From assembly GCA_027315115.1 (NCBI GenBank), contig DAHUYQ010000016.1, positions 1-64,000 on the forward strand: a stretch of DNA of 64,000 nucleotides, written 5' to 3'. The notes beneath the pieces were generated by a model. The model had not been told where the DNA came from and made no database searches. It worked only from the letters and a program-made list of their open reading frames with translations. Origin of the DNA: Solirubrobacterales bacterium. GTDB lineage: Bacteria; Actinomycetota; Thermoleophilia; Solirubrobacterales; Solirubrobacteraceae. The position numbers were made by a program, and so were the translations under genes. Shown here piece after piece: positions 37,144 through 62,659 of this stretch; position 1 is the stretch's first letter; each line of letters opens with the position of its first letter.

Positions 37144-38232
37144 TCAGGCGGCGGCCTGCAGCACCGACCTGGTCTGGCGGGCGATCTCCAGGTCCTCGCG
37201 AGCACTGACCACGAGCGTGCGCACGCGCGCGCCGGCGGCCGTGATCTCTGCATCGCCGCCCTGGCTCGCGCTGTGCACGCCGACGCCGAGGAACGCCAGG
37301 CGCTGCGCCGCCATCGAGCGGATCTCAGCCGCGTGCTCCCCGACCCCGCCGGTGAAGGCGAGCGCGTCGATGCCGCCCAGCGCAGCCGCCATCGCGGCGA
37401 TGCCGCCAGCGAGCCGGTGCACGTAGACCTCCAGCGCAAGCCCGGCCCGATCCTCGCCAGCGGAGGCGCGTGCGAGCACCTCCCGCATGTCCGCCGTGCC
37501 ACACAGCCCGAGCAGGCCGGACTCGTACTCCAGCGCGTGCGCGACCTCTGCCGCGCTGGCCTGTGTGTGCTCCAGCAGCCAGAGCACGAGCCCCGGGTCC
37601 ACGCTGCCGCTGCGCGTCGCCATCGCCAGGCCCTCCAAGGGCGTGAACCCCATCGTCGTGTCGACCGAGCGACCGGCGGCGATCGCGCACAGCGAGGCGC
37701 CGGCCCCCAGGTGTGCGCTGACCAGACGCCGCGGCGAGCCCCCGAGCATCTGCGCGGCGCGACGCGCGACCCAGGCATGTGAGAGCCCGTGGAATCCATA
37801 CCGGTGGATCTGCAGCTCCTGCCTCCAGCGCGCCGGCAACGCGTAGGTGGATGCCGCGGCAGGCATCCGCGCGTGGAAGGCGGTGTCGAAGCAGGCCACC
37901 GCCGGCAGCTCGCGCAGCAGCCCGTCCACCGCGTCCAGAGCCGCCAGGGACCTGCGCTGGTGCAGCGGCGCGAGATCCGCAAGCTCGCTCAGGGCGCTGC
38001 GCACCGAGGCGTCGATCCTGACCGGCGCCAGGAAGCGCCGGCCGCCGTGCACGATCCTGTGCCCGACCGCCTGCGCGCCGGCCAGCGGCCCGGCCAGCGC
38101 CGCCGCGAGCGCGGCGAGGTCCAGCTCACCGCCGTCCAGATCGATCTGCTCGGCGGCCAGCGGCCGCTCCGCATCGCCGGTCAGCGCAAGCTTCAGGCTG
38201 CTGGAGCCCGCGTTCACGCTCAGCACCCGCAT
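37144..38232 (-). CDS. ackA: Acetate kinase
   Basis: Makes ATP from acetyl phosphate and ADP, releasing acetate. The 362-aa protein, somewhat shorter than the usual 400, has the ASKHA markers VLSVNAGSSSLKLAL (3-17), AVGHRIVHGGRRF, FDTAFHARMPAAA, YGFHGLSHAWVARRA (the second family signature), AHLGAGASLCAIA and FTGGVGEHA. It lies 9 bases downstream of phosphoketolase, whose acetyl phosphate it would use, so the pair forms an ATP-yielding fermentative shunt. Confidence 0.94.
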   Translation of the reverse strand: MRVLSVNAGSSSLKLALTGDAERPLAAEQIDLDGGELDLAALAAALAGPLAGAQAVGHRIVHGGRRFLAPVRIDASVRSALSELADLAPLHQRRSLAALDAVDGLLRELPAVACFDTAFHARMPAAASTYALPARWRQELQIHRYGFHGLSHAWVARRAAQMLGGSPRRLVSAHLGAGASLCAIAAGRSVDTTMGFTPLEGLAMATRSGSVDPGLVLWLLEHTQASAAEVAHALEYESGLLGLCGTADMREVLARASAGEDRAGLALEVYVHRLAGGIAAMAAALGGIDALAFTGGVGEHAAEIRSMAAQRLAFLGVGVHSASQGGDAEITAAGARVRTLVVSAREDLEIARQTRSVLQAAA

Positions 38233-38241
38233 CCGCGCTCC

Positions 38242-40614
38242 TCAGGAGGTCGGCCAGGTCCAGTCACGGATCTCGGACTGGTCCTCTCCGTGGGAGCGCG
38301 CGTATGCGGCGTGTCGCAGACGTTGCTCGCTCATCTGCTGGCGCAGATGCGCGGCCGCGGGCAGCAGGCCCGGCACCCGGTCGATCACGTCCATCACCAG
38401 GTGGAAGCGATCGATGTCGTTCATCATCGCCATGTCGAAGGGGGTCGTGGTGGTGCCCTCCTCCTTGTAACCGCGCACATGAAGCTGGTCATGGTTGTGG
38501 CGGCGGTATGTCAGGCGGTGGATCAGCCACGGGTAGCCGTGGTAGGCGAAGACGGTCGGCTTCTCGGTGGTGAACAGCGCGTCGAAGTCCTGGTCGGAGA
38601 GCCCGTGCGGGTGCTCGTGTTCGGGCTGCAGGCGCATCAGGTCCACGACGTTGATCACCCGCACGGCCAGCTCGGGGAGATGCTCGCGCAGCAGCGCGAC
38701 GGCCGCGAGCGTCTCCAATGTCGGCACATCGCCCGCGCACGCCATCACCACGTCCGGCACGCGACCCTCGTCGTTGCTGGCCCACTCCCAGATGCCGATT
38801 CCCCTGGTGCAGTGCAGCACCGCGTCCTCGATGTCCAGATAGGCGAGCTGCGGCTGCTTGCCGGCGACGATCACGTTGACGTAGTCGCGGCTGCGCAGGC
38901 AGTGGTCGGCGACCGAGAGCAGGCAGTTGGCGTCCGGCGGGAGGTAGACCCGCACGATCTCCGCCTTCTTGTTGACGACGTGGTCGATGAAGCCGGGGTC
39001 CTGGTGGGAGAAGCCGTTGTGATCCTGGCGCCAGACGTGCGAGGAGAGCAGGATGTTCAGCGAGGCGATCGGCCGCCTCCACGGGATTTCGCGACAGACC
39101 TTCAGCCACTTGGCGTGCTGGTTGAACATCGAGTCGACGATGTGGACGAACGCCTCGTAGCAGTTGAACAGGCCGTGGCGTCCGCTGAGCAGGTATCCCT
39201 CCAGCCAGCCCTCGCAGAGATGCTCGCTGAGCACCTCCATCACGCGGCCGTGGCTCGCCAGGTGCTCGTCCGCGTCCTCTCGCTCGGCGACCCAGACTCG
39301 GTCGGTCGCCTCGAAGACCGCGTCCAGGCGGTTGGAGACCGTCTCGTCCGGGCCAACCAGCCGGAAGCGATCCGGGTTGGCGGCGATCACGTCGCGCAGG
39401 TAGGCGCCGAGCGCGCGCGTGGATTCCACGAAGCGGCTGCCGGGCACGCCGACCTCCACGGCGTAGGCGGTGAAGTCCGGCAGCTCCAGCTCGCGCAGCA
39501 GGATGCCGCCGTTCGCGTTCGGGTTGGCGCCCATGCGTCGATCGCCGCGCGGCGCCAGCGCAAGGATCTCCTCGCGCACGGCTCCGTGCTCGTCGAAGAG
39601 CTCCTCCGGGCGGTAGGAGCGCATCCACTGCTCGAGCATCCGCAGTTGCTCCGGGTCGCCGGCCGGGTCGGGGAGCGGAACCTGGTGGCTGCGAAACGAC
39701 CCCTCCAATGGCAGCCCGTTCAACCGGCTCGGGCACGTCCAGCCCTTCGGGGTCTCAAGCACGATCATGGGCCACCGCGGGCGAACCCGCTCTCCTTCCC
39801 CCTCCCCTTCTCGCACGCGTCGGTGGATCTCCTGGATCTCCTCGATGCTCGCGGCGAGCGTGGCGCTCATCTGCCGGTGCATCGTCGGCGGCTCGTGCCC
39901 CGCGACGAAGCGGGGCTCGTACCCGTAGCCGTGCAGCAGCTCGACCAGCTCGCGCTCGGGGATGCGCGCGAGGATCGTCGGGCCCGCGATCTTGTACCCG
40001 TTGAGATGCAGCACGGGCAGCACCGCGCCGTCGCAGACCGGATCGAGGAACTTGTTGGAATGCCAGCTTGCCGCCAGCGGGCCGGTCTCCGCCTCGCCAT
40101 CTCCGATCACGCAGACCGCGATCAGGTCGGGGTTGTCGAGCACCGCTCCATGCGCGTGCAGCAGGCTGTAGCCGAGCTCTCCACCCTCGTTGATCGAGCC
40201 CGGCGTCTGCGGCGCGACGTGGCTGGGAATCCCACCCGGAGACGAGAACTGCGCGAACAGCCGCCGCAGGCCCTCCTCGTCGCGCCCGATGTGCGGGTAG
40301 ATCTCGCTGTAGGTGCCCTCCAGGTAGACGTTCGCCACGACGGCGGGCCCGCCGTGGCCCGGCCCGGTCACGAAGATCGCGTCCAGGTCGCCGGCGGCCA
40401 CCGCGTGGCTGACGTGCGCGTAGACGAAGTTCAGGCCCGGCGTGGTGCCCCAATGCCCGAGCAGCCGCGGCTTTATGTGCTCGGGCCGCAGCGGCTCCCG
40501 CAGCAGCGGGTTGCCCTTCAGATAGATCTGCCCCACAGACAGATAGTTCGCCGCTCGCCAGAGCGCGTCCAGTGCATGCAACTGTGCATCGGAGAGCGGT
40601 GCAGAGGTACCCAC
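38242..40614 (-). CDS. xfp: Xylulose-5-phosphate/fructose-6-phosphate phosphoketolase
   Basis: TPP enzyme that splits sugar phosphates with inorganic phosphate into acetyl phosphate and an aldose phosphate. At 790 aa it has family length. Signatures: [17 protein letters not shown] (about 52-68), [47 protein letters not shown], the TPP/Mg region [20 protein letters not shown], and KAGPT-like [10 protein letters not shown]. Near the end is [13 protein letters not shown]. The start is GTG 40614. It is divergent from a USP gene and co-directional with ackA. Confidence 0.95.
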
Positions 40615-40758
40615 AGACGATCATGCTCACGCGGCGCGCAGGCCGCACGATGCGTATAAAGCCGCAGAGGCGGTGTCGCGCCTCCCGGATCACGGCGGCG
40701 ACGCGCTGACATAGCTTGCTGGCACACAGGTCAATCGCTAGGCACAGGAGCCACGGGG

Positions 40759-41658
40759 ATGTTCAAGAACGTGCTGGTCGGGGTGGATGGAAGGCCCAAC
40801 GGACGCGACGCGGTCGCCCTGGCGACCAGGCTGCTGGCCGGCGATGGCAGGCTCACGCTCGCGCACGTCCACAGCGAGGCGCCGCACACCGCTCGCGACA
40901 ATGTCCCCGGGCGCGCAGGCGATGCGGAGCAGGAGTCGATGGCGCTGCTGCAGAGCGAGCGCGACGCGACCGAAGCGCGGGCGGAGCTGCTTGCCTACCA
41001 CGCCAGCTCGCCCGGCCACGGCCTGCACGTGCTGGCCGAAGAACGCGAAGCCGACCTGATCGTCGTCGGCTCGTGCTCACGCAGCGGCTTTGGCCGCGTG
41101 ATGCTCGGCGACGACACGCGCGCCGCGCTGAACGGCGCCTCGTGCGCCGTCGCGGTCGCGGTGCGTGGCTACTTCGAGCACCCGCTGCCGATCGCGACGA
41201 TCGGCGTGGGCTACGACGGATCGCGCGAGAGCCGGCTGGCGCTCGCCGCCGCCAGGCAGATCGCGTCCGGCAACCGTTCGCTGATCCGGGCGCTGCACGT
41301 GGTGATGCTGCCCAGCTACACCTTTGCGGGCATCGCCGCGCCGGCGGTCGGCGAGAGCGTGGACATGCTGCTGCAGGACGCGCGCACGGAAGTGGAGGCG
41401 CTGGAGGACGTCCAGGGACGAGCCGTGTACGGACTGCCCGGCGAGGAGCTCGCGGCCTTTGGCGGGGAAGTCGACCTGCTGGTCGTAGGCTCGCGCAGCT
41501 ACGGACCGGTCAAGCGCCTGATGCTCGGCAGCACGTCCAACCACCTGCAGCGCCATGCCCGCTGCTCGCTGCTGGTGCTGCCGCGCAGCTCCGCCTCCGC
41601 GGCAGACCACGCGCAAGACAGTACTTTCCCGCAACCGGCAGCCACCTCAGAGCGGTAA
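40759..41658 (+). CDS. Tandem universal stress protein
   Basis: 299 aa with two USP domains. Domain 1 (1-140) starts MFKNVLVGVDGRPNGRDAV and has DLIVVGSCSRSGFGRVMLGD. Domain 2 (about 145-285) starts IATIGVGYDGSRESRLAL and has DLLVVGSRSYGPVKRLMLGS, close to the G-2x-G-9x-G-S/T ATP-binding pattern with one Gly replaced by Ser. USPs are linked to hypoxia, stasis and stress survival. GGAGCC lies upstream. A response regulator gene follows after 9 bases, probably in the same transcript, and xfp is divergent. Confidence 0.92.
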   Translation: MFKNVLVGVDGRPNGRDAVALATRLLAGDGRLTLAHVHSEAPHTARDNVPGRAGDAEQESMALLQSERDATEARAELLAYHASSPGHGLHVLAEEREADLIVVGSCSRSGFGRVMLGDDTRAALNGASCAVAVAVRGYFEHPLPIATIGVGYDGSRESRLALAAARQIASGNRSLIRALHVVMLPSYTFAGIAAPAVGESVDMLLQDARTEVEALEDVQGRAVYGLPGEELAAFGGEVDLLVVGSRSYGPVKRLMLGSTSNHLQRHARCSLLVLPRSSASAADHAQDSTFPQPAATSER

Positions 41659-41667
41659 TTTCCACGT

Positions 41668-42366
41668 ATGAGCGCAAGCGAAGCGGAGGGGCTGGCCGGC
41701 GGCGAGGACCGGGGCGCGGCCCAGAAGACGATCAGAATCGTGCTCGCCGACGACCACGCGGTCGTGCGCAGCGGGCTGCGGCTGTTGCTGGACAGCGAGC
41801 CGGACTTCGAGGTGGTCGCCGAGGCGGGCGACCTCGAAGCCGCGCAGAGATACGTGCGGGGCCATCATCCCGATGTCCTGGTGCTGGACCTCAATATGCC
41901 CGGCGGCTCCAGCCTGGAGGCGATCCCCACGATCCGCGAGCAGATGCCCGAGACCCAGATCGTCGTGCTGACCATGCAGCAGGAGCCCGCCTTCGCGCGC
42001 CGCGCGCTGGGCGCCGGCGCGATCGGGTACGTGCTCAAGGAGGCCGCCGACGACGAGCTCGTGGAGGCCGTGCACCGCGCGGCGGCGGGCGAGAGCTATC
42101 TCAACCCACGCCTGGGCGCGCGCCTGGCCTCGGAGCCGCCTCCCGGCCCGCCGGACGATCTCTCAGAGCGCGAGGTGGACGTCCTGCGCCTGATCGCGCT
42201 CGGGCACACCAACGCGGAGATCGCGGGCAAGCTCTACCTCTCGGTGCGCACGGTCGAGACTCATCGCGCGCACATCCAGCAGAAGCTGAACCTCTCCTCG
42301 CGCGCCGAGCTGGTCGGCTACGCCCTGCGGCGTGGCCTGGTCACCAGCGAAGACTCCGAAGAGTGA
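41668..42366 (+). CDS. NarL/LuxR-family response regulator
   Basis: 232 aa. The receiver domain (about 21-140) has acidic pocket LADDH (26-30), phospho-acceptor Asp74 in VLVLDLNMPGG, a switch Thr in VVLTMQQ and Lys in GYVLKEAA. The LuxR-type HTH (about 165-225) has LSEREVDVLRLIALGHTNAE and SVRTVETHRAHIQQKL. DosR/DevR has the same architecture. Its cognate kinase could be the two-GAF kinase at 56288, but this is inference. It is downstream of a USP gene and convergent with the cytochrome b operon. Confidence 0.93.
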   Translation: MSASEAEGLAGGEDRGAAQKTIRIVLADDHAVVRSGLRLLLDSEPDFEVVAEAGDLEAAQRYVRGHHPDVLVLDLNMPGGSSLEAIPTIREQMPETQIVVLTMQQEPAFARRALGAGAIGYVLKEAADDELVEAVHRAAAGESYLNPRLGARLASEPPPGPPDDLSEREVDVLRLIALGHTNAEIAGKLYLSVRTVETHRAHIQQKLNLSSRAELVGYALRRGLVTSEDSEE

Positions 42367-42370: not shown

Positions 42371-43411
42371 CTAGGTCTTCGCGCCCGGGGCGGAGGAGCC
42401 CGCGGTGCGCGGCGGGCCAGAGCCCGACCCGGGCGGCGGGCCAGAGCCCGCCCCGGCCGCTTCGCGCTGCTCGCGGTAGTGCTCGCGCCATATCAGCCTG
42501 TAGATGGGGATCGCCCGGGGGATGTCGCGCACGCCCGGGATGAACGGGATCAGCACGAAGCCGGCGCTCAGCGCCAGCATGATCAGCATCACCAGCGCAT
42601 CCGCGTTTTCAGATGACTTGAACGGTTCGATCTGATACCAGAAGGTGTAGAGCCAGAGCCACACCTGGCCCGGGAAGCTGCCCGTCTCGTTCATCATCCC
42701 CCACTGGCTGCCCAGCAGGTGGTCCGCTTCCGCACGGCGTTCCAGTTCCCCGCCGTCGGCCATGAACAGCAGCGGCTTGGTGTAGTCGGTCTGGTAGAAC
42801 TGCCGGCTGGTCAGCAGCGCCCCGTCGACGCCGCCGCTCTGCGCAAGGCCGAGCAGCGAGGCCATCATCGGGCCGACAGGGCCGTATTCGCCGGCCGGCA
42901 CGCTGACGGCGGTGCCGGAGCTGCTCGCCTTTTCCAGCGCCTTGGCATAGGCGCCGGTCCAGGCCTGCTGCTGCGCCTTGGAGGCTTTCGCATAGCGGTC
43001 GATTTCGGCGCTCAGAGCCGGATCGTTGGGGATGCTGCGCAGCGGTTCTATGACGTAGTCGTAGGCGGTGTCGATCGGATGGCTGACGCCGAGCCATTCC
43101 TGCAGGTGGATGAAGGCGACGTGCTGCCCTTCGCCGTTGTGGTTGTAGGGAGGTCCGTACGTAGCCGTGTCGCTGGTGCCGTCCAGCTCCGCGGTCGCCG
43201 TGGTCAAGAAGTCGACCGGCATGTTGCGCGACCAGCTCTTGATGGTGGACGGCTTCTCGTCCGGCGAGGAGAACAGGATCGTCATCGCGACAGCGATCAA
43301 CGCGATCACGGCGGTCGCGATCGCGACCTCCTTGACGAGGTCGTAAGGACGGTACGGGCCGTTCCAGGTGCGCGCCATCTCGTTCAGGCGCGCGTTGCGT
43401 GAGCGCCTCAT
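42371..43411 (-). CDS. Cytochrome b C-terminal-type subunit with large extracytoplasmic insert
   Basis: 346 aa. One helix near residues 28-48 (VAIATAVIALIAVAMTILF), then about 200 residues outside the membrane, then helices near 270-300 (VMLIMLALSAGFVLIPFI) ending PGVRDIPRAIPIYRLIWREHY, as in b6f subunit IV/cytochrome b C-terminal proteins. The insert (for example HVAFIHLQEWLGVSHPIDTAYDY) is unlike canonical subunit IV. It should form the quinol oxidase/reductase core with the N-terminal cytochrome b gene, whose stop overlaps this start by 4 bases. The C-tail is Gly/Pro-rich. Confidence 0.75.
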   Translation of the reverse strand: MRRSRNARLNEMARTWNGPYRPYDLVKEVAIATAVIALIAVAMTILFSSPDEKPSTIKSWSRNMPVDFLTTATAELDGTSDTATYGPPYNHNGEGQHVAFIHLQEWLGVSHPIDTAYDYVIEPLRSIPNDPALSAEIDRYAKASKAQQQAWTGAYAKALEKASSSGTAVSVPAGEYGPVGPMMASLLGLAQSGGVDGALLTSRQFYQTDYTKPLLFMADGGELERRAEADHLLGSQWGMMNETGSFPGQVWLWLYTFWYQIEPFKSSENADALVMLIMLALSAGFVLIPFIPGVRDIPRAIPIYRLIWREHYREQREAAGAGSGPPPGSGSGPPRTAGSSAPGAKT

Positions 43412-44190
43412 CGTGGCCTTCCCATCTGGTCCGCGGGGCGCTGCCCCGACTCCGGCCGTCCCAGGTCGGTCTCTTCCGCGCGGGTCGCCGCCGCGCGGGT
43501 CGCCGCAGCCGCTTCGGCGACGGCGGGCTCACGATCGATCACCCCGAGCGGCAGCGGAGGCACGACGCCGTGACGCCGCACAAGCAGGATGTGGCCCACG
43601 ACCAGCGCGACCACCGCGGCCGGCAGCAGCAGCACGTGGTAGGTGTACATCTGGCCGAAGTTCGTGACGTTGAAGAAGGCGCCTATCCCCACGGAGCTCA
43701 TCGCGTCCTTGCCCTGCGTGGAGATCCACTGCGAGTCGAAGTTCTGCTGTGAGACATAGCCGGTGAACGCGGCGCCGATCGCGACCAGGAAGGTCACCGC
43801 TCCCGACATCCAGGTACGGGCGCGTCCTCCCCGCCACGCCGCCATGAAGAACTTGCCCCAGAGGTGAATCACCATGGCGAAGAAGAAGAGCTCGACCGAC
43901 CACAGATGAATGCTGTTGAAGAAGTGCCCGACGCTCGTGTCGTGCCACCATGCGGGTCCCTTGAGGCCGAGGATCACGCCGCTTGCGATGATCACCACGA
44001 GCGCGCCGATCGTCGCGGCGCCGAACACGTAGATCCAGGAGTCGACATAGCTCGGCTGGCGGTCGGGCAGCAGCCGCTCCGGCGGCCACGAGCGCAAGGC
44101 CGACTCACGCAGGCGCACGGTCCAGGAAGAGGAGGCATGGCGGTCGATGGGCTCACCACCGGCCGAGCTGGATGTGGGGATGCTGCTCAT
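43408..44190 (-). CDS. Cytochrome b N-terminal (b6-type) subunit
   Basis: 260 aa with four helices. The two heme pairs are visible: IHLWSVELFFFAMVIHLW (His spaced 14) and YHVLLLPAAVVALVVGHILL (His spaced 15, the b6f-type spacing rather than 14 in bc1). These would bind hemes bL and bH in a menaquinol:acceptor oxidoreductase. The C-terminal tail is Ala-rich. Starts and stops overlap by 4 bases on both sides, so the three genes are one coupled operon. No Rieske or cytochrome c gene is linked. Confidence 0.88.
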   Translation of the reverse strand: MSSIPTSSSAGGEPIDRHASSSWTVRLRESALRSWPPERLLPDRQPSYVDSWIYVFGAATIGALVVIIASGVILGLKGPAWWHDTSVGHFFNSIHLWSVELFFFAMVIHLWGKFFMAAWRGGRARTWMSGAVTFLVAIGAAFTGYVSQQNFDSQWISTQGKDAMSSVGIGAFFNVTNFGQMYTYHVLLLPAAVVALVVGHILLVRRHGVVPPLPLGVIDREPAVAEAAAATRAAATRAEETDLGRPESGQRPADQMGRPR

Positions 44191-44417
44191 GCCGATGCTC
44201 GCCCCTCGTTCCCGGTGGCGCTCGGCGACTCGCCGCGACGTGCGGCGGCTCTGCGACGCGCGCCCGGAAACGGCAGCAGGACCGCGAGCGCGAAGACGAT
44301 CAGCATCGCGATGATCACCGCCAGATTCGCCACCGACATATCGAAGAAGTGCCAGTGGACATAATGCGCCGGCTGGTTGAGATTGAAGACCGCCCCAGAT
44401 ACGAGCTCGCCAATCAC
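44187..44417 (-). CDS. Small single-helix protein at the head of the cytochrome b operon
   Basis: 76 aa from GTG 44417 (MIGELVSGAVFNLNQPAHY). A short amphipathic start with YVHWHFFDMSVANL leads into one helix (LAVIIAMLIVFALAVLLPFPG) and a basic tail. AGGGGG lies upstream. It overlaps the cytochrome b start by 4 bases (ATGA), so it is likely a small structural or assembly subunit of the complex. The histidines before the helix are notable. I know no named family for it. Confidence 0.65.
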   Translation of the reverse strand: MIGELVSGAVFNLNQPAHYVHWHFFDMSVANLAVIIAMLIVFALAVLLPFPGARRRAAARRGESPSATGNEGRASA

Positions 44418-44832
44418 GCTTGTGCCACCCCCTGGAAGTTCACGCCGCGGCTCCGAGCCGCATACCGATGATCGGACGCAGCCTAAGAGACCCATCCTGG
44501 TTCGCCATCGGTACTTTGCCACCTGCGCCGGACGGCTTCTGACCCGACTCGGTGACCTGCCGGCAGCCACGTCCAGCGGTCTCGCAGTAGGCGTGAACCG
44601 ACGAGGCGGTCCTGTGGGAAACCCACAGCCCACCTGACGGGCATCCCGGGATGCCGCGCGACGCCGCGAGCGAGAACATGAGCATCGACGGCGTGGCTTC
44701 GAAGGATCGCCCTCCTGTCACAGGGGCGTCACCTCGGGGTTCGCCTCACGCGGCGTGGTGCTCTTGCTCCCCTAGAACGCCCGCCCGCTGCGCAGGGTCG
44801 CCGCCGTCGTTCGCTCTCTCCCGGACGACGGC
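44418..44832. other. Gene-poor spacer with hairpins
   Basis: No supported gene. It contains a 7-bp hairpin ctgtggg-aaa-cccacag (44612-44628) and a 16-base palindrome ggcatcccgggatgcc (44640-44655). It should hold the promoter of the cytochrome b operon near its left end. Confidence 0.5.
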
Positions 44833-47477: not shown

Positions 47478-47581
47478 GTGCTGCTGGCGCGCGCCGGTGC
47501 TGGACACAGACCAAGTCAACTCCGCGCGCCCACGCTGCACGACCGCGCAGCCCACGGAACGATGCTCCGTAGTTCTCACTC

Positions 47582-50013: not shown

Positions 50014-50901
50014 TCAGCCCCCGCCGCCGAGCGGAGTGACCAGCAGCGGACAGCGCGCGTGCCGCCTCACCGCGGCCGAGACGCTGCGCCCCATGAGCCG
50101 ATCCACCGGCCCGTAGTGGTGCGCGCCGAGGACCAGCAGGTCGACGCCGCGGGAAACCTCGCCGAGCTTCTCGGACGGATTCCCCTCGCGCACCTCGCCC
50201 GTCGCCGACAGGCCCGTTGGCAGAGCCGCCATCACCTTCGCAAGCCCTTCCTCCGCGGCGAGCCGGCGAGCTTTGACGACCGCCGGGTAGGCGATCGCGC
50301 CGCCGTACTCGACGGCCAGCGCGACGCGCGTGTCCGCGATCATCACGATGTGCAGCGCCGCGGCGAGCTCGCCGGCGAGCCGCACTGCGAGATCGAGCTC
50401 CGGCCCCGGCTGCTCGATCGCGTCGCAGCCCACCGCGATGCTGGCGATCTTCGGCACAGTCAGCACCTCCTCGCAGGCGGCGAGGGCGACCGCGACCGGG
50501 CAGGGCGGATCGTGAAGGATCGCCGCCGCCACGCTGCCGAGCATCGCCTGCCCGACGCGACCGCGGTGACAGGCGCCGAGCACCAGCAGGTCGGCGCGAT
50601 GGAAGGAGGCGGCGTCCAGCAGCGCCGGCGCCACATCGAGGGCCTCGATCACCAGCGGGTGCGAGAGTGTCTGCTGCTCGCGCAGGAATGCCTGTCCCTG
50701 TTCCACGCTGCGCTGCGCAGAGCCCAGGTCGAGCCGGGGCGCGGAGGGATCGACTCTGCTGCTCGCCGTTCGCGGATGCTGCACGGTGCAGACGATCACT
50801 TCGCCGTCTCGCCCCGCCAGCGCCGCAGCCAGGGCAAGCGCTCCCCTGCCGCGCGGGGATCCGTCGAAGCCGACAAGGACCCTGGAGAACATGCCGCTCA
50901 C
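50014..50901 (-). CDS. Tandem universal stress protein
   Basis: 295 aa, two USP domains. Domain 1: VLVGFDGSPRGRGALALA, with DLLVLGACHRGRVGQAMLGS. Domain 2: IASIAVGCDAIEQPGPEL, with DLLVLGAHHYGPVDRLMGRS. Its start overlaps the GNAT stop by 4 bases, making a GNAT-USP operon; in Mycobacterium smegmatis a GNAT acetylates a USP, so a similar pairing is plausible. It is convergent with the PFK gene (9 bases between stops). Confidence 0.92.
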   Translation of the reverse strand: MSGMFSRVLVGFDGSPRGRGALALAAALAGRDGEVIVCTVQHPRTASSRVDPSAPRLDLGSAQRSVEQGQAFLREQQTLSHPLVIEALDVAPALLDAASFHRADLLVLGACHRGRVGQAMLGSVAAAILHDPPCPVAVALAACEEVLTVPKIASIAVGCDAIEQPGPELDLAVRLAGELAAALHIVMIADTRVALAVEYGGAIAYPAVVKARRLAAEEGLAKVMAALPTGLSATGEVREGNPSEKLGEVSRGVDLLVLGAHHYGPVDRLMGRSVSAAVRRHARCPLLVTPLGGGG

Positions 50902-54087: not shown

Positions 54088-55265
54088 GTCGAGGCCATGG
54101 TCGTCGCGTCGAGGCCGGCCAGGCAGGGGCCGAGATAGCGAGCGGCGATCTTGCCGGGAGGCGACCACATCGGCGCATCGCCTATCTCGGAGGCAAAGCC
54201 ATGACCGCCGGTGATGCGTGCGCTGAGATAGCGCCGTCTGGATCCGGTGAGCAGCATCCCGCGCAGCACCGGCGCGAACGGCTCGCGCGGCACCCCGGCG
54301 CCTGCCAGCGCCGCGATCGACCGTGCGGCCACGTCGGCCTGCTGCGCCGAGATCCCGCCGTGCTTGACCGGAAAGTCCACCGCGTCTCCGGCGGCGAACA
54401 CCGGCCCGGAGTCCGGCACCTGGCCGAAGCGATCGACTCTGACGAAGCCGTGTTTGGCCGACGGGATGCCACGCACGGCGGGCCCGTAGAGCTCCGGCAG
54501 CGCCACGATCCGGTCCACGACCAGCCGGCGATCGCCCGGGTCGACGGTGATCTCACCAGAGCCCACCACTTCGGCGTAGGCCGAGGTGATTGTCTGTATG
54601 CCGGCCTCCTTCAGCAACGCCCGCACCGCATCGCTCGCCTTGCCGCCGAAGATCGCAAGCGGCGTGTCCTCCGGCGTGAGGATCGTGATCTCAGCCGCCA
54701 CGTTCATCTCGAACGCGCGCGCCGCGGTCATCAACGCCAGCTCGTAGATCGGCAGCGGCCAGGCCATCCTGGCCGGTATCACGAACGCCAGCGATCGCAC
54801 CGCCCCTTCCTCCACGTCCTGGATCAGCCCGTGCATCAGCTCGTCAAGTCGCGCATCGTCGATCGTGATCGCATGAGTGAACCGTGGCCTCGCGTTCGCC
54901 CCGACGGCGATCCCGAGCGCCCCGTAGGGAAGCTGCTCGCCGGAGGCGGTGTGAACGAGCCGGGCGTCGGGCTCCACCCAGGCGAGCTCGTCGAGCACAT
55001 GAGCGGCTTTCGCCTCCCGCAGGATCCGATCCAGCGGGTAGCGCGCCGCGGGAGCGTAGGCGAACGGCTCCCGCACCGAGTAGGGCCGGTACACGAACTC
55101 CTGGTTGGGCGCGATCACGGTGAGCTCGGTGTGCTCCGGGGCCAGGTCGTGGAGCGCGAGCGCCAGCTCCAGCGCCGCCACTCCGCCTCCCGCGATCAGG
55201 ACCGGCAGCGGCTTGGCGGCAGCGGGCGGGCTCTCACCGCCTCGATCGGCATGCTCCGGGCTCAT
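54084..55265 (-). CDS. FAD-dependent NAD(P)/quinone oxidoreductase
   Basis: 393-aa two-dinucleotide-binding-domain flavoprotein. FAD motif LIAGGGVAALELALALHDL (about 19-37), second Rossmann region, and the C-terminal FAD site PVFAAGDAVDFPVKHGGISA. It looks like the NDH-2/sulfide:quinone oxidoreductase group, but I see only one Cys (in YLGPCLAGL), whereas SQR needs a set of redox Cys. An NADH or quinone role is therefore more likely. ATG 55265 overlaps the upstream USP stop by 4 bases, and its stop overlaps the downstream USP start by 4 bases. Confidence 0.88.
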   Translation of the reverse strand: MSPEHADRGGESPPAAAKPLPVLIAGGGVAALELALALHDLAPEHTELTVIAPNQEFVYRPYSVREPFAYAPAARYPLDRILREAKAAHVLDELAWVEPDARLVHTASGEQLPYGALGIAVGANARPRFTHAITIDDARLDELMHGLIQDVEEGAVRSLAFVIPARMAWPLPIYELALMTAARAFEMNVAAEITILTPEDTPLAIFGGKASDAVRALLKEAGIQTITSAYAEVVGSGEITVDPGDRRLVVDRIVALPELYGPAVRGIPSAKHGFVRVDRFGQVPDSGPVFAAGDAVDFPVKHGGISAQQADVAARSIAALAGAGVPREPFAPVLRGMLLTGSRRRYLSARITGGHGFASEIGDAPMWSPPGKIAARYLGPCLAGLDATTMAST

Positions 55266-56140
55266 GGCCGGAGCTCCGGCGGGATCACCAGCACCGAGCA
55301 GCCGAGCGTCCGCACCGCTCGACGGCTGACGCTTCCCAGCATCGCTCCCACGTCGCCTGCCCGGCGGCTGCCGAGCACCGCCAGCGTGGCGTTCTCGGCG
55401 TCCACCACCTGCTCGATCAGCTCGGACGCGCCGCTGGGCTCGATGGTGGTGCGAGCACGATCTCCACAGGCGCGCTCCAGCAGCGCCTTCTGGGCCAAGA
55501 CCCTGTGCGGATGTGCGTTGGACTCGCTGCCCTGGGCATGAACCAGGACGATGCGTCGGCATTCCGGCCGGGCGAGCCGCACGGCGAGCTCGACGAGCGC
55601 ATCAGAGCCTTCACAGCCGTCGCTCGCGACGACGATCGTCTCTGCGAGCGGCCGTTCAGCGGGGGCTCGTGCCAGCAACAGGGGCGTCGTGAAGGTTCGC
55701 AGCGTCTCCACCGCCACGCTGCCGCCGAAGGTCCCGAACGCCGAATGCGACGGCGCGCCCAGCGCCAGCAGGTCATAGTCGGCCGCCCGGTTGGCGATCA
55801 CCTTCGAGGGTGGGCCACCCGGATCGACCAGCGGCGTGAAGGACACTCCGCTGCGCTCCGCGATCTGCGACGCACGCGCGATCACCCTGCCCGCTCGCAG
55901 TGATCCGAGCGCGGCCGACCTGAACTTTCCGCCGCCCCGGGTGGCCGCGATGGCAAGCAGCGTGAGGTGGCCCTGCGCGCCGACGAGCTCCGCCGCCTGC
56001 CGCACCGCCGCGAAGCTCGGCTTGGTGCCGTCCACCGCGCACAGCGCACGCTCGAACGGGCGCGGCAGGGCGTCCGGCGCCGGCGCAACTGTGTGGACTG
56101 CGCGCAGTCGATTTCCCGTGTGCTCTCCGGTCTCGGTCAT
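55262..56140 (-). CDS. Tandem universal stress protein
   Basis: 292 aa from ATG 56140, with GGAGG 8 bases upstream. Domain 1 starts FERALCAVDGTKPSFAAV and has DLLALGAPSHSAFGTFGGSV. Domain 2 starts ETIVVASDGCEGSDALV and has LAVLGSRRAGDVGAMLGSV, a good ATP-loop pattern. It heads the USP-oxidoreductase-USP operon and is divergent from the two-GAF sensor kinase across a 147-base region full of repeats. Confidence 0.92.
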   Translation of the reverse strand: MTETGEHTGNRLRAVHTVAPAPDALPRPFERALCAVDGTKPSFAAVRQAAELVGAQGHLTLLAIAATRGGGKFRSAALGSLRAGRVIARASQIAERSGVSFTPLVDPGGPPSKVIANRAADYDLLALGAPSHSAFGTFGGSVAVETLRTFTTPLLLARAPAERPLAETIVVASDGCEGSDALVELAVRLARPECRRIVLVHAQGSESNAHPHRVLAQKALLERACGDRARTTIEPSGASELIEQVVDAENATLAVLGSRRAGDVGAMLGSVSRRAVRTLGCSVLVIPPELRP

Positions 56141-56287: not shown

Positions 56288-58087
56288 ATGGTCGACATCG
56301 AGAACGATCTGTGGATTCGCCGGCTGCTCGACGTCGGCCGAGCGCTGATGAGCGAGCTCGACCGCGAGGCGGTGCTGCGACGCGTGTTGGAGATCGCCTG
56401 CGAAGCGACCCAGGCTCGCTACGCGGCGCTCGGGATCCTCAACGAGACGCGCACCGCGCTGGAGAGGTTCGTGACGCTGGGGATCGACGAGCAGGCGCGC
56501 CGCCAGATCGGCGATCTGCCGGTCGGGCGGGGTGTGCTCGGGGTGCTGATCGACGATCCCCAACCGCTGCGCCTCGCCGATGTCGCACGCCATCCGCGCA
56601 GCTACGGCTTCCCTGCGGGGCACCCTGTGATGCGCTCGTTTCTGGGCGTGCCGGTGCTGATTGGCGGCCAGGCCTGGGGCAACCTCTACCTGACCGAGAA
56701 GCAGGGCGGCGCGCACTTCACCGAGCAGGACGAGCAGGTGGCGATGGTGCTGGCGGAGTGGGCGGCAATCGCGATCGAGAACGCACGCGTCTACGAGACC
56801 AGTGAGAAGCGCCGCATCGAGCTCGAGCAGGCGGTGCTCGGGCTGCAGGCCAGCAGAGACGTGGCGATCGCGATCGGCAGCGATCTCAGCCTGGAGCATG
56901 CGCTGGAGCTGATCGTCAAGCGCGGCAGGGCGCTGGTGGACGCGCGCAGCATCGTGATCATGCTTCGCGACGGCCCCGACCTGGTCGTCTCCGCGGGCGC
57001 CGGGCACGTCGAGGACATGCGCGGCACCCGCGTCTCGATCGCCGACTCGACCTCGGGGGAGGTGATGCGGCAAGCACGCCCGCGGCGAATCGGAAACGCC
57101 GGCGAGAAGCTGCGCGTGGCGCCGCAGAGCGTCTTCGGCGTGCCCGATCCGCACACGGCGCTGCTCGTGCCGCTGGTCTACAGAGGAGATGCGGTCGGCG
57201 TGCTGGCCGCCTTCGACCGCGGGCCCGAGGGGCACCAGTTCACGGCGGAGGACGAGCAGTTGCTGGAGAGCTTCGCGGCGAGCGCCGCGACCGCCGTGGC
57301 GATGGCGCAGAACGCGCAGGCGGACCGGCTTCGCAGCGCCCTGGCGGCCGCGGACGCCGAACGCCGTCGCTGGGGCCGCGAGCTGCACGACGAGACGCTG
57401 CAGGGCCTTGGCGGGCTGCGGCTGCTGCTCTCGACCGCGTTACGTAGCGAGGACCGCGGACATCTCACCAAGGCGGCCGGCGAGGCGATCGGCCACATAG
57501 AGCGCGAGATCAAGAACCTGCGATCGATCATCTCCGAGCTGCGTCCCGCGGCGCTGGACGATCTCGGCCTGCGCGCCGCGATCGAGACGCTCGTGGAGGG
57601 CCACCGCGAGATGCACGACCTGCGGATCGTCTGCGAGCTGAGCCTGCCTGATACCGACACCGGCCATGCGCGGCTGGACCCCGAGCTGGAGATCGGCGCC
57701 TACAGGCTCGTGCAGGAGGCGCTCACCAACGTCGTCAAGCATGCCCAGGCCGGCGAAGTGAAGATCTCCGTCAAGCACGAGGCCGGGGAGGTCGCGATCG
57801 AGGTCGCCGACGACGGCGTGGGCTTCTCCCCCGAGTCGCGCAGCGAGGGCTTCGGACTGGTCGGCATGCGCGAGCGGGTGCGGCTCGCCTCCGGCGGCCT
57901 GAGCATCACCTCCGCGCCAGGCTCCGGAACGGTCGTGCGCGCACGGCTCTCCGCGGTCTCCGGCGATGGCGACCTCGGCGGCATGCTCGCCGAAGGTGGA
58001 CGCTCCCAGGTCCACCTGGAGCAGGGTGAGCCGCGGGCGCAGCAGGCCGAGGCTCAGACGCCGAGCAGGCCGCGCCGCAGCGCGTAG
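56288..58087 (+). CDS. Two-GAF sensor histidine kinase (DosS/DevS-like)
   Basis: 599 aa soluble kinase. GAF-A (about 25-170) contains GRGVLGVLIDDPQPLRL, and His112 in GHPVMRSFLGVPV aligns with the segment that carries the heme-ligand His of mycobacterial DosS/DosT. GAF-B is about 190-345. The HisKA_3 domain has the phospho-acceptor His367 in WGRELHDETLQGLGGL. The HATPase has EALTNVVKHAQAG, VADDGVGF and FGLVGMRERV. It would sense O2, NO or redox state and phosphorylate a NarL-type regulator, perhaps the one at 41668. Its 3' end overlaps an antisense LuxR gene by 34 bases. Confidence 0.9.
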   Translation: MVDIENDLWIRRLLDVGRALMSELDREAVLRRVLEIACEATQARYAALGILNETRTALERFVTLGIDEQARRQIGDLPVGRGVLGVLIDDPQPLRLADVARHPRSYGFPAGHPVMRSFLGVPVLIGGQAWGNLYLTEKQGGAHFTEQDEQVAMVLAEWAAIAIENARVYETSEKRRIELEQAVLGLQASRDVAIAIGSDLSLEHALELIVKRGRALVDARSIVIMLRDGPDLVVSAGAGHVEDMRGTRVSIADSTSGEVMRQARPRRIGNAGEKLRVAPQSVFGVPDPHTALLVPLVYRGDAVGVLAAFDRGPEGHQFTAEDEQLLESFAASAATAVAMAQNAQADRLRSALAAADAERRRWGRELHDETLQGLGGLRLLLSTALRSEDRGHLTKAAGEAIGHIEREIKNLRSIISELRPAALDDLGLRAAIETLVEGHREMHDLRIVCELSLPDTDTGHARLDPELEIGAYRLVQEALTNVVKHAQAGEVKISVKHEAGEVAIEVADDGVGFSPESRSEGFGLVGMRERVRLASGGLSITSAPGSGTVVRARLSAVSGDGDLGGMLAEGGRSQVHLEQGEPRAQQAEAQTPSRPRRSA

Positions 58088-58305
58088 CGCACCAGCTCGG
58101 CTCTTTTGCTGAGCCCGAGCTTGCGGTTTATCCGCGCGCGGTGGGTCTCGACTGTGCGAGGAGAGAGATGAAGCTGACGTGCGACCTCCGCCGATGTGTG
58201 ACCGAGCGCGATCAACCGCAGCACCTCCGTCTCGCGGACGCTCAGCCCATCGAGCCTCGTTTCGCCTGCCCCGTTCAGCGTCCTCGTAGTGGCAACGGTG
58301 TTCAT
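58054..58305 (-). CDS. Stand-alone LuxR-type HTH protein
   Basis: 83 aa, only a GerE/LuxR DNA-binding domain: LSVRETEVLRLIALGHTSAE and HLSPRTVETHRARINRKL, with no receiver. The HTH is close in sequence to that of the response regulator at 41668. It could compete for or modulate the same sites, or be a truncated regulator. It overlaps the kinase gene tail-to-tail by 34 bases and is divergent from trehalose synthase. Confidence 0.8.
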   Translation of the reverse strand: MNTVATTRTLNGAGETRLDGLSVRETEVLRLIALGHTSAEVARQLHLSPRTVETHRARINRKLGLSKRAELVRYALRRGLLGV

Positions 58306-58484: not shown

Positions 58485-58551
58485 TCGCCCGGTGCGCCTG
58501 ATCCTGGGTAGCGCAAATCGCACAATCGACCGGGAAGGCGGCACTGACTCG

Positions 58552-59913
58552 ATGCTGCAGCAGGTGACGGTTGGGCGCTGGTCGCTCGATGCCTACGAGG
58601 GAATCGTGCCGGCCGCGATCCTCGAGGAGCTGCGCCGGCTGGCGGCGCAACTCGACGGTGCGCGGATCCTCGTGATCAACGCCACCCCGTACGGCGGCGG
58701 CGTCTCGGAGCTGCTGCGCTCCTCCGTGCCGCTGCTGCGCGATCTGGGCCTGCAGGTGGACTGGAAGGTGATGCCCGGAGACCAAGACTTCTACAGGGCC
58801 ACCAAGGCGTTGCACAACGCGCTGCAGGGCTCGCCGCGGCCGCTCACCACCGCCGAGCAGGTGGCTTATCTGGACTGTGCGCGCGAGAACGCGACCAGCC
58901 TGGACGGCGAATACGACTTCGTCATCGTTCACGACCCCCAACCGGCCGGCCTGCTGGCCGCACACGGCAAGCACGACGGCGCGCGCTGGATCTGGCGCTG
59001 TCACATCGACACCAGCGAGCCCAACGCGGATGCCTGGAGCTTCCTCTCCCCGCTGCTGGCCGCGTTCGACGCGGCGGTGTTCACGATGCTGGAGTTCGTG
59101 CCCCCGAGCTTCCCGGTGCGGCGCGTGGAGACGATCGCGCCGGCGATCGACCCTCTGAGCCCGAAGAACATCGAGCTCTCGCCACAGATCACCGACCAGA
59201 TCCTCGACTGGATGGGGATCGACCTGCCGGGCAGGCTGATCACCCAGGTCTCGCGCTTCGATCTCTGGAAGGACCCGCTGGGCGTGATCGCCGCCTACCG
59301 GCTGGTGCGCGAGGATCTCCCCGAGCTGCAGCTCGCGCTCGTCGGCTCGATGGCGCTCGACGACCCGGAGGGATGGGAGGTCTACCGCGAGGTCACCGAG
59401 TACGCGGCCCACGATCCGCTGATCCACATCTACACCAACCTCACCGGCGCGAGCAACATCGAGGTCAACGCCTTCCAGCGGCTCTCCGAGGTGGTGATCC
59501 AGAAGTCGATTCGGGAGGGCTTCGGCCTGGTGGTCTCAGAGTCGCTGTGGAAGGGCACGCCCGTCGTCGCCGGGCACGCGGGCGGCATCCCGATCCAGAT
59601 GCCGGACGGCCGCGGCGGGGCGCTTGTGGAGGGCGTGGAGGAGTGTGCGCAGGCGCTGCTGGGCATGCTGCGCGATCCCGAGATGGCCAACCGCATGGGA
59701 GCGGAAGGCCGCGACTGGGTGCGCGAGCACTTCCTGCTGCCGCGACTGCTGCGTGACGAACTGCGGCTGCTCAATGGGCTCGTCTCATCCCAGCCATCCA
59801 CTTCGCGGTGGGCGGGCGCCCGGCAGGCAGACACGCCGCAGGCAGACACGCAGCAGGCCGGCGCCCGGCAGGCAAGCCCCCGGCACGCAAGCCCACATGG
59901 AGCAGAGCGCTGA
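58552..59913 (+). CDS. treT: Trehalose glycosyltransferring synthase (GT4)
   Basis: Joins NDP-glucose and glucose to make trehalose. About 453 aa from ATG 58552. GT4 features: [34 protein letters not shown], the nucleotide-sugar loop [18 protein letters not shown], and [20 protein letters not shown] with the E-x7-E-type motif. The last 35 residues are a repetitive Gln/Ala/Arg tail ([13 protein letters not shown]). The frame is open to GTG 58477. Trehalose would act as compatible solute or reserve. The stop lies 17 bases inside the ATPase gene. Confidence 0.88.
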
Positions 59914-62659
59914 AGACCTGGCGACGCCGGATGCGACCGAGCGCGTAGACCTGCTGCTGCGCGACCTGCGCAGCTCTCGCGAGGGCCTCTCCTCGCGAGA
60001 GGCCGCGCGCCGGCTGCTGCAGCACGGACCAAACGAGCTGCGCCGGCGTGGCGGCCTGCGCTGGCCGGGCGAGCTGATGCGCCAGCTCACGCATCCGCTT
60101 GCGCTGCTGCTGTGGCTGGCGGGAGCGCTCTCCTTCGCGGTCGGCAACCAGACGGTCGGGATCGCCGTGGTGCTGGTGATCATGCTCAACGCGGCATTCG
60201 CGTTCGCACAGGAGATCGAGGCCGAGCGCGCCGTCGAGGCGCTTGCGGGCTATCTGCCCCAGCAGGCCCGCGTGATGCGCGACGGCGAGGTCGTCACAGC
60301 CGAGGCGGCTTCGCTGGTGCCTGGCGACGTCGTGCTCGTGGCCGAGGGTGACCGGGTGCCGGCTGACATGCGGCTGCTCACCGGCGCGGTGGAGGTGGAC
60401 CTCTCCACGCTGACAGGCGAGTCGGCGCCTGTGATGCGCGACGCGATGCTCGGCGATCGCCATGTTCCGCGGCTGGCGGCGCGCGACCTGCTCTTCAGCG
60501 GCACGACCTGCGACGAGGGCGAAGCGGCCGGCATCGTCTTCGCGACGGGCATGCGCACCGAGCTCGGCCGGATCGCCGCTCTCTCCGAGCGCGTCAAGGA
60601 AGAGCCGAGCCCGCTGGAAGAACAGGTCCGCAGGGTCGCGTGGCTGATCGCGGCGATCGCGCTGACGATGGCGATCGGGTTCGTGCCGGTCGCCATCTTC
60701 GCCGCGGGCCTCTCCCTCGAAGACGGTGTCGTCTTCGCCGTCGGGCTGCTGGCCGGCAACGTGCCAGAGGGCCTGCTGCCGGCGATCACGCTCGCGCTTG
60801 CGGTCGCGGTGAGCCTGCTGGCGCGCCGCGGCGCTCTGGTCAAGCGCCTGAGCGCCGTGGAGACGCTCGGCAGCACCGACGTGATCTGCACCGACAAGAC
60901 GGGCACGCTGACCCTCAACAGAATGCGGCCCGTCGGCGCCTGGACGCGAGCGGGAGAGAGCGACCTGCGCAGGGAGCGCGCGGCAACGCCGGGAGGCCCG
61001 GCGGTGCAGGCGCTGGCCACGGCGGCCGTCGCGTGCAACAACGCGGATCTGGATGCGCACCGGGACGGCCAGGGCGAGGGCGCGAGCGGCGACCCGACCG
61101 AGATAGCCGTCCTGATCGCCGCCGCGGCGCTGGGCGCGGACCCCGACACGAGCCGCTTCAGGAGCGTCCGCAAGGCGACCTACCACTTCGACCCTCGACG
61201 CAAGATGATGTCCACGCTGGACCCTGTCGACGGCGGCTGGCGGCTGCACACCAAGGGCGCGCCTGAGACGATGCTGCCTCGCTGCGCGACGATCCTCGCG
61301 CGGGAAGGCCGTCCCGTCGCCCTGACCGACAGCGAGCGAACGGAGATCTCCGCCCGGGTGGAGCGCTTCGCGCGCGAAGGCCTGCGGGTGCTCGCGTTCG
61401 CGGAGCGCCGGCTGGACACGGACGCCGCACCGGCCCGCGAGCTTGCCGAGCAGGACATGTGCTTCCTCGGTCTCGTGAGCATGGTGGACCCGCCGCGCGC
61501 GGAGGTGAGCGACGCAGTCTCGACCTGCCATCAGGCCGGCATTCGGGTCATCGTGATCACGGGCGACCATCCTCTGACCGCCGCCGCGATCGCGTCGCAG
61601 GTCGGCATCGGCGGCGCCGCCCCCAGAGCGGTCGATGCGTCGCACATCGACCACACGCACGAGCGGCAGCTCGAGGACCTGCTGGCCGGCGGAGAGGAGC
61701 TGATCTTCGCGCGCGCCTCCCCGGAGGCCAAGCTCCAGATCGCCGAAGCGCTGGAGGCCCAAGGCCACACGATCGCCATGACCGGCGACGGGGTCAACGA
61801 CGCGCCGGCACTGCGGCGGGCCGACATCGGCGTGGCGATGGGCCGCTCAGGCACCGACGTCGCGCGCGAGGCCGCCACGATGGTCCTCACCGACGACAAC
61901 TTCGCGACGATCGCGATCGCGATCGAGGCGGGCAGGCGCGTCTACGCCAACGTGCGCAAGTTCATCACCTACATCTTCGCCCACGCCACCCCGGAGGTCG
62001 CGCCGTTCCTGCTCTTCGCGCTGGCCGGGGGCGCGGTGCCGCTGCCGCTCACCGTGATGCAGATACTCGCCTTCGACGTGGGCACCGAGACGCTGCCCTC
62101 GCTGGCGCTCGCACGCGACCCGGCCGAGCCGGGCAGCATGCGCAAGCCACCGCGCCCACGCTCGGAGGGCGTGATCCGCGGGTCCATGCTGCTGCGCGCA
62201 TGGCTCTTCCTGGGCGTGCTGATCGCGGCGCTCTCGCTCGGCGGCTACTTCTACGTGCTGAGGAGCGCTGGCTGGCACCCGGGCGTTCCGACGGGGCCCG
62301 GGCACCCACTCCACCACGCTTACCTGCAGGCCACGACGATGACGTTCATGGGCATGATCGCGGGACAGATCGGGACGGCGTTCGCGGTGCGCACGCAGCG
62401 CGCGTCGTTGTGGTCGATCGGCGTGTTTAGCAACCCCTTCCTGCTGTACGCGATCGTCGCGGAGCTCGCGATCGCGGCGCTGTTCGTCTACGCGCCGCCG
62501 CTGCAGTCGCTGCTGGGCACGGCGGCGCTGCCGGTGAAGTACCTGGCGATCCTGCCCGCCTATCCGCTGGTCGTCTGGGGCGCGGACGAGATACGGCGCT
62601 GGGCGCTGCGCCGAAGCGAAGCCGCACGCGCCCGCCGGCTCCAGCACGCCGGTGCTTAG
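59897..62659 (+). CDS. P2-type cation-transporting ATPase
   Basis: 920 aa. Cytosolic N-terminus, then ten expected helices. TLTGESAPV (171-179) is the actuator loop and [18 protein letters not shown] (288-305) the M4 ion site. [10 protein letters not shown] (331-340) has phospho-acceptor Asp333; KGAPETML and [21 protein letters not shown] complete the P/N domains. This is the Ca2+/Mg2+/Na+ P2 class, close in layout to mycobacterial CtpF, a DosR-regulon member. The ion cannot be fixed by eye. ATG 59897 overlaps treT by 17 bases; a frame open farther upstream is a shadow. Confidence 0.93.

What the first reader, a model, noticed from the sequence alone, without database searches (positions are those of the whole stretch)
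37144..62659. Clustered hypoxia/dormancy-like island with a DosS-like kinase, USPs and PPi/acetyl-phosphate metabolism
Within 25 kb lie four USP genes, a two-GAF kinase, a NarL-type regulator, an orphan LuxR HTH protein, phosphoketolase, acetate kinase, CoA-transferase, PEP synthase, PPi-type PFK, alcohol dehydrogenase, an FAD oxidoreductase, an acetyltransferase/deacetylase pair, TreT and a CtpF-like ATPase. Most of these categories appear in DosR/DevR regulons of mycobacteria or streptomycetes, where they are scattered. Here they are contiguous, suggesting one inherited low-energy survival module.
Basis: partly seen in the sequence, partly recalled or inferred. Interest (0 to 1): 0.74.

Follow-up and report, generated by a model that had tools for sequence, protein, structure and literature searches.

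The report
Low-oxygen survival gene island
A soil actinobacterium carries a 25-kb block of stress and fermentation genes that looks like a partly shared switchable set, run by a probable heme gas-sensing kinase related to the tuberculosis dormancy sensors and marked by a DNA tag unlike the known dormancy tags.

Summary
The kinase's first GAF domain matches DosT/DevS GAF-A (best E 4e-42); heme-ligand His, distal Tyr and a DosT-type Gly are conserved in 39 of 39 kinases compared. In other genera of the order the kinase's neighbourhood holds a response-regulator relative in 23 of 29 loci and a USP in 12 of 29, against 1 and 0 of 20 control stretches. A 16-bp motif, TCCGTAGTTNYCCGCA, marks promoters of kinase, regulator, FAD oxidoreductase, USP, phosphoketolase and cytochrome genes across the order. 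In the window two sites are strong (phosphoketolase/USP1 and regulator), one is fair (USP4/kinase), and three are near background and depend on the matrix used. Known DosR and OsdR boxes are not enriched. Congeners carry the same genes reshuffled, sometimes on two contigs. Most likely a DosT/OsdK-type low-oxygen regulon with its own operator; signal, binding and expression are untested. 'Scattered in streptomycetes' is contradicted for S. coelicolor.

The parts
37144..38232 (-). acetate kinase
   Evidence: PF00871 E 1.2e-99
38242..40614 (-). phosphoketolase (XFP)
   Evidence: PF09364, PF03894, PF09363
40651..40666 (+). motif site between XFP and USP1, strong
   Evidence: 19.3 bits with the 8-site matrix, 16.2 with 43 sites, 13.8-18.2 with window-free matrices
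40759..41658 (+). USP1, tandem USP
   Evidence: PF00582, two stretches
41618..41633 (+). motif site before the regulator (inside the 3' end of USP1), strong
   Evidence: 9.9 bits, 18.2, 17.3-19.3
41668..42366 (+). NarL-type response regulator RR1 (phospho-Asp 74)
   Evidence: PF00072, PF00196; NarL, VraR, DevR in PDB
42371..43411 (-). CytX, membrane protein of an undescribed family
   Evidence: no Pfam; conserved family
43408..44190 (-). CytB, b6-like cytochrome b
   Evidence: PF13631; His95, 109, 185, 200 invariant in 14 sequences; PDB cytochrome b6
44187..44417 (-). small one-TM protein before CytB, 76 aa, GTG start estimated
44508..44523 (+). weak motif-like site before the cytochrome operon
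   Evidence: 9.5 bits; best in this zone only 4.9-8.9 with window-free matrices
45024..47450 (-). PEP synthase; start estimated
   Evidence: TIGR01418 785.9 bits, cut-off 739.75
47566..47581 (+). weak motif-like site between PEP synthase and CoA-transferase
   Evidence: 11.5 bits; best in this zone 4.4-7.4 with window-free matrices
47582..48964 (+). acetyl-CoA hydrolase/transferase-type protein (CAT)
   Evidence: PF13336
48961..50004 (+). phosphofructokinase, 'mixed' subfamily
   Evidence: TIGR02483 454.7 bits, cut-off 430.55
50014..50901 (-). USP2, tandem USP
   Evidence: PF00582
50898..51449 (-). GNAT acetyltransferase
   Evidence: PF00583
51546..52568 (-). histone-deacetylase-type protein; start estimated
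   Evidence: PF00850
52607..53560 (+). zinc alcohol dehydrogenase; start estimated
   Evidence: PF08240
53596..54087 (-). USP3; start estimated
   Evidence: PF00582
54084..55274 (-). FAD oxidoreductase, SQR-like; start estimated
   Evidence: PF07992; weak SQR match
55262..56140 (-). USP4, tandem USP; start estimated
   Evidence: PF00582
56218..56233 (-). motif site between USP4 and the kinase, fair
   Evidence: 11.7 bits, 12.0, 6.6-10.2 with window-free matrices
56288..58087 (+). two-GAF DosT/DosS-type histidine kinase: His112, Tyr134, Gly49, His367
58054..58305 (-). stand-alone LuxR HTH, 83 aa, probably a receiver-less RR2
   Evidence: PF00196; 91% to the like-placed ORF of G137 over 65 residues
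58462..58477 (-). weak motif-like site between the HTH gene and TreT
   Evidence: 8.8 bits, 7.1-9.4
58552..59913 (+). TreT-type glycosyltransferase; start estimated
   Evidence: PF21269
59900..62659 (+). type-II P-type cation ATPase, ion unknown; start estimated
   Evidence: PF00122, PF00689, PF00690

Best explanation
A low-oxygen or NO survival regulon of the DosT/OsdK kind in a Solirubrobacterales bacterium, gathered into one island. Proposed mechanism: the first GAF domain of the kinase binds heme through His112 and senses O2, NO or CO, with Tyr134 and the open Gly49 position as in DosT; loss of O2 releases kinase activity; the phosphate passes to the NarL-type regulator RR1, which binds the 16-bp operator TCCGTAGTTNYCCGCA before phosphoketolase-acetate kinase, USP1, its own gene and probably USP4 and the kinase, and in relatives also the FAD oxidoreductase and the cytochrome b operon. 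The outcome would be ATP from acetyl phosphate, an extra membrane electron path and USP-type stress control. Shown by computation: gene content, heme-site residues, kinase-regulator-USP linkage across genera, an order-wide promoter motif. Inferred: heme binding, the gas signal, that RR1 is the protein that binds the motif, that the metabolic genes without a clear site (PFK, PEP synthase, CoA-transferase, HDAC, ADH, TreT, ATPase) belong to the same response, and induction.
For: GAF-A to DosT/DevS structures, E 3.8e-42; heme-site residues in 39 of 39 kinases, roles from passages of PMC4082495; RR relative in 23, FAD oxidoreductase in 16, USP in 12 and phosphoketolase with acetate kinase in 4 of 29 out-of-genus kinase loci against 1, 0, 0 and 0 of 20 control stretches; motif from 8 congener sites tested on other genera: 24 of 106 upstream stretches against 26 of 1580 random ones, and 14 sites in 19.5 kb of promoters, 19 in the other 508.5 kb of the same loci, 1 in 400 kb of control DNA; cytochrome-operon promoters 16 of 28 against 1 of 47; window sites 40651 and 41618 stay on top with each of the matrices.
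Against: With matrices free of any influence from the window only two window sites stand clear of background; 56218 scores 6.6-10.2 and 44508, 47566 and 58462 are weak. USP2-GNAT, HDAC and ADH have no good site. In congeners the 8-site matrix finds no new site above 11 bits before PFK (0 of 15), ackA (0 of 8), USP3 (0 of 6), TreT (0 of 5), GNAT (0 of 5) or CAT (0 of 3), and only 2 of 22 RR, 2 of 8 KIN and 4 of 11 FAD. 3 of 29 out-of-genus kinase loci hold no other island family. Kinase and RR1 are 14 kb apart in the window. Gene order and content vary in the genus.
Confidence: 0.6

Rival explanations
1. Same kinase-regulator pair and operator, but the signal is not low oxygen: GAF-A answers to redox state, H2S or another ligand, and the set serves starvation, desiccation or general stress.
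For: The island also holds TreT, an ATPase and acetylation genes. The listing and abstract of PMC9062744 report that M. tuberculosis DosS binds H2S at its heme iron.
Against: Gly at the DosS E87 position in 39 of 39 kinases is the DosT state, linked in PMC4082495 (passages) to stable oxygen binding.
Confidence: 0.22
2. Only a core (kinase, RR, USPs, FAD oxidoreductase, phosphoketolase-acetate kinase, cytochrome operon) is co-regulated; PFK, HDAC, ADH, PEP synthase, CoA-transferase, TreT and ATPase are neighbours by position, not members of the regulon.
For: Motif absent or weak before these genes in window and congeners; PFK, HDAC and/or ADH follow the NMT1-type gene in 13 of 13 congener loci that hold it, mostly without the kinase (loci chosen by DNA hits).
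Against: The same families gather near each other again in G081 and G137, and several lie together in L087 of another class.
Confidence: 0.4
3. Chance aggregation of common gene families without functional meaning.
For: Each family is widespread and gene order is not conserved in the genus.
Against: Enrichment round the kinase in other genera and the order-wide motif.
Confidence: 0.05

Closest known systems
OsdK-OsdR regulon of Streptomyces coelicolor (PMC5069765, passages read)
   Same: GAF-type kinase related to DosT, NarL-type regulator, USP genes clustered near the pair, pyruvate phosphate dikinase and an alcohol dehydrogenase among predicted targets, 16-nt operator before the regulator gene
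   Different: Operator differs (AGGGCCGATCGGCCCT there; not enriched here); nitrate reductase and nitroreductase targets there were not among the island families found here; phosphoketolase is not mentioned in the main text of that paper (0 occurrences)
DosS/DosT-DosR system of Mycobacterium tuberculosis (PMC4082495, passages read)
   Same: GAF-A close in sequence, heme-ligand His and distal Tyr conserved, USPs among controlled genes
   Different: Core DosR box (recalled) is depleted and not enriched in the window; RR1 is closer to NarL and VraR than to DevR in the PDB
Cytochrome b6 of b6f/bc1 complexes
   Same: CytB aligns over most of its length with cytochrome b6 and keeps four candidate heme His
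   Different: No Rieske or cytochrome c1/f gene among the island proteins scanned; CytX has no PDB sequence match and no fold match at E 0.001, on a low-confidence model

Membership tests
DosS/DosT-type heme kinase | GAF-A domain homologous to DosS/DosT GAF-A | tested here: met
   five DosT/DevS GAF-A chains, E 3e-38 to 3.8e-42
DosS/DosT-type heme kinase | proximal heme His and distal Tyr | tested here: met
   39 of 39 kinases; His112 and Tyr134; roles
DosS/DosT-type heme kinase | second GAF, HisKA_3 and HATPase order | tested here: met
DosS/DosT-type heme kinase | heme binding and O2/NO/CO-dependent kinase activity | not testable with these tools
   needs protein
DosR (DevR) regulon | DosR box before target genes | tested here: not met
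   GGGACNNNNGTCCC with up to 2 mismatches: 29 matches, 57.7 expected
OsdR regulon | OsdR operator before target genes | tested here: not met
   1 match with 3 mismatches, 1.38 expected
OsdR/DosR-type regulon (works like) | a common operator before kinase, regulator, USP and other genes | tested here: met
   order-wide; in the window strong at two promoters, fair at one
OsdR/DosR-type regulon (works like) | induction by hypoxia or NO | not testable with these tools
   needs expression data
Cytochrome bc1/b6f complex | Rieske protein and cytochrome c1/f encoded with cytochrome b | tested here: not met
   no such Pfam among the island proteins scanned; the rest of the genome was not searched
Pyrophosphate-dependent PFK | PPi-specific active-site residues | tested here: inconclusive
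   GGEDT and PKTIDND seen, meaning recalled; NCBIfam gives the 'mixed' subfamily

The most novel reading that the evidence does not exclude
In Solirubrobacterales a DosT-like heme-kinase regulon with its own operator drives an undescribed three-subunit membrane complex (small TM protein, b6-like CytB, CytX) as a Rieske-less quinone-linked electron outlet at low oxygen; and in this lineage the regulon has gained a receiver-less copy of its DNA-binding domain (58054-58305) that competes for the same operator and sets a phosphorylation-independent floor or brake.
Probability: 0.25. Interest if true: 0.75.

Novelty: new variant of a known kind. Interest (0 to 1): 0.55.

Why it matters
It extends the DosT/OsdK-type dormancy circuit to an order of largely uncultured soil, peat and permafrost actinobacteria and gives a concrete operator by which the regulon can be read from genomes and tested in the tube. 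It also suggests that such a regulon keeps its gene content while gene order is reshuffled, and that the operator has diverged while the heme pocket has not.

Tried and rejected
DosR and OsdR boxes: not enriched in the window. A scan of named genomes with the single kinase found nothing; the second scan went to the CytX alignment. CytX structure: mean pLDDT 69.4, no PDB fold hit at E 0.001, so no fold claim. PPi-PFK literature: nothing of use. Own-genome pattern search: 193 one-mismatch matches against 134 for the reversed pattern, too noisy for a genome-wide regulon; 7 of the 14 further own-genome stretches hold a site above 11.5 bits, some inside genes. The reading that RR2 was lost outright gave way to truncation to its HTH.

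The zones were drawn after the sites were seen.

Selection to know of: the 40 loci were chosen because they had DNA hits, so one search shows arrangement, not frequency. The 29 loci come from 27 of the 49 out-of-genus genomes with a hit, mostly better-scoring ones; its 20 control stretches come from 5 single-contig genomes. The 106 upstream stretches are from 32 loci (3 of other genera of the same family added) and count divergent promoters twice. The 47 are of 51. Alignment A3 holds 29 of the 33 sequences first given.
Full report
Observation. The window (G+C 69.9%) lies in an unnamed draft genome of 3.3 Mb in 65 contigs. Its nearest named CytX relatives are mostly Solirubrobacterales or Solirubrobacteraceae MAGs, several with isolate labels such as palsa, bog, fen or Chersky. 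The island sits between an NMT1-type transporter gene ending at 37113 and a HAMP histidine kinase gene at 62680-63927.

Sensor. The first GAF domain hits DosT 2vzw at E 3.8e-42 and four DevS chains. In 39 kinases compared, the window's and an own-genome paralogue included, the heme-ligand His, the distal Tyr, the Gly at the DosS E87 position and the H-box His are invariant; window numbers are His112, Tyr134, Gly49 and His367. PMC4082495 (passages) gives His149 as the proximal ligand of DosS, Tyr171 as the residue needed to tell ligands apart, and Gly in DosT in place of Glu87, linked there to stable oxygen binding, while noting disagreement about DosS auto-oxidation. Heme binding here is inferred.

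Linkage. The kinase has a match at E 1e-60 or better in 53 of 121 genomes of the order. Of 29 out-of-genus loci, 23 hold an RR relative, 16 an FAD oxidoreductase, 12 a USP, 8 a GNAT, 7 an ADH-type protein and 4 phosphoketolase with acetate kinase; the 20 control stretches hold 1, 0, 0, 0, 1 and 0. Three of the 29 hold no other island family. L087, from another class, holds three USPs, PEP synthase, a weak ADH-type match, CytB-CytX, a GNAT, phosphoketolase and acetate kinase within 20 kb; a GAF-GAF-LuxR protein lies there. The other nine stretches round distant CytX homologues hold at most two further island families.

Fluidity. In 13 of 13 fetched congener loci that hold the NMT1-type gene, PFK, HDAC and/or ADH lie in the same stretch. 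In G060 and G138 the cytochrome-RR-USP1-XFP-AckA and kinase-FAD-USP3 parts are on another contig than PFK-HDAC-ADH. G137 is colinear with the window from XFP to CAT on one contig and has USP3-FAD-USP4-kinase on another. G081 holds 14 of 19 island families on one 54.7-kb contig, but its kinase is only 49% identical and may be the paralogue. CAT has no hit at E 1e-20 in the four congeners sampled, but is present in G137, G134 and G124. I read this as a gene set kept together while its order changes, not as one fixed block.

Orphan HTH. Full-length second regulators (RR2) stand beside the kinase in G060, G138, G130, G136 and G048. In the window and in G137 that place holds an HTH only; the two are 91% identical over 65 residues. 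Next come RR2 proteins at 71-75%, hardly above RR1-type proteins, which reach 72%, so descent from RR2 rests mainly on position. Its recognition helix is close to that of RR1. Function open.

Operator. Alignment of USP1 promoters of congeners showed a conserved element. An EM run over island promoters, window included, gave sites before USP1 11 of 11, FAD 10 of 12, KIN 7 of 9, RR 10 of 23, XFP 5 of 9, against 2 of 37 control promoters and 14 of 168 shuffled ones. A matrix from eight congener USP1/XFP sites alone was then tested elsewhere. In other genera 24 of 106 upstream stretches of KIN, RR, FAD, USP and XFP score above 9 bits against 26 of 1580 random 250-bp control segments. Above 11 bits there are 14 sites in 19.5 kb of promoters, 19 in the other 508.5 kb of the same loci and 1 in 400 kb of control DNA; 200 column-permuted matrices give a mean of 0.9 and a maximum of 9. 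Cytochrome-operon promoters have a site above 11 bits in 16 of 28 Solirubrobacterales-like loci and in 1 of 47 others. In congeners, new sites beyond the training ones are fewer: FAD 4 of 11, KIN 2 of 8, RR 2 of 22, cytB 1 of 7, HDAC 1 of 12, ADH 1 of 13, one control gene (FtsH) 1 of 4, and none for PFK, ackA, TreT, CAT, GNAT or USP3.

Window test. With 43 sites from outside the window the seven places above 8.5 bits are 41618 (18.2), 40651 (16.2), 56218 (12.0), 47566 (11.5), 33576 inside a CoxE-type gene (10.7), 44508 (9.5) and 58462 (8.8); six lie in eight promoter zones of 1.06 kb, and 0 of 1000 column-permuted matrices do as well. But 11 of the 43 sites had been picked with the EM, which had seen the window. 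Without them 40651 and 41618 stay far above background with each of three matrices (13.8-19.3 bits; control DNA has 1 to 6 sites above 11 bits in 400 kb). 56218 scores 10.2, 9.3 and 6.6; 58462 scores 8.8, 7.1 and 9.4; 47566 and 44508 fall to 4.4-8.9. So the motif is firm for XFP-AckA, USP1 and RR1, fair for USP4 and kinase, and only suggestive for the rest.

What it is. Best reading: a DosT/OsdK-type heme kinase with a NarL-type regulator and its own operator, with a low-oxygen survival set in Solirubrobacterales. It works like the DosR and OsdR regulons; it is filed as neither, as neither operator tested is found beyond chance. Clustering of such genes is not new: in S. coelicolor most usp genes lie near osdK and osdR, and pyruvate phosphate dikinase and an alcohol dehydrogenase are predicted targets (PMC5069765, passages). 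New here are lineage, operator and added content. The listings showed no paper on such a regulon in Thermoleophilia or Solirubrobacterales; only listings were read, and the library lacks most subscription journals.

Cytochrome cassette. CytB lies beside CytX in 79 of the 80 (the other is cut by the contig end); a rough pattern finds the small TM protein before CytB in 55 of 79; CytB and CytX are one ORF in L083. In a phylum sample CytX has a hit in 10 of 296 genomes, the own included. CytB resembles cytochrome b6; quinone-linked electron transfer is inference.

Noticed in passing
42371-44417 and L170-L249: Three-gene membrane cassette (small TM protein, b6-like CytB, CytX without Pfam match) spread over Actinomycetota and some MAGs of other phyla; CytB and CytX fused in L083.
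   Followed up: partly
44833-44956: Tandem array of 5.9 copies of a 21-bp unit between the cytochrome operon and PEP synthase.
   Followed up: no
   Followed up: partly
L090:9357-15197 (own genome, contig C10): Paralogous two-GAF kinase (47% identity) with a USP gene 38 bp after a motif site of 17.0 bits.
   Followed up: partly
L252:5936-7998 and L254:3747 (own genome): Motif sites of 14.1 bits before a small ORF and a LonC-type protease gene, and of 19.8 bits between divergent FHA-protein and polyketide-cyclase-type genes.
   Followed up: no
29084-30745: Protein with a D-glucuronyl C5-epimerase C-terminal domain, PF06662.
   Followed up: no
5678-8377: ORF of 899 aa with coding-type base composition and no Pfam match.
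   Followed up: no
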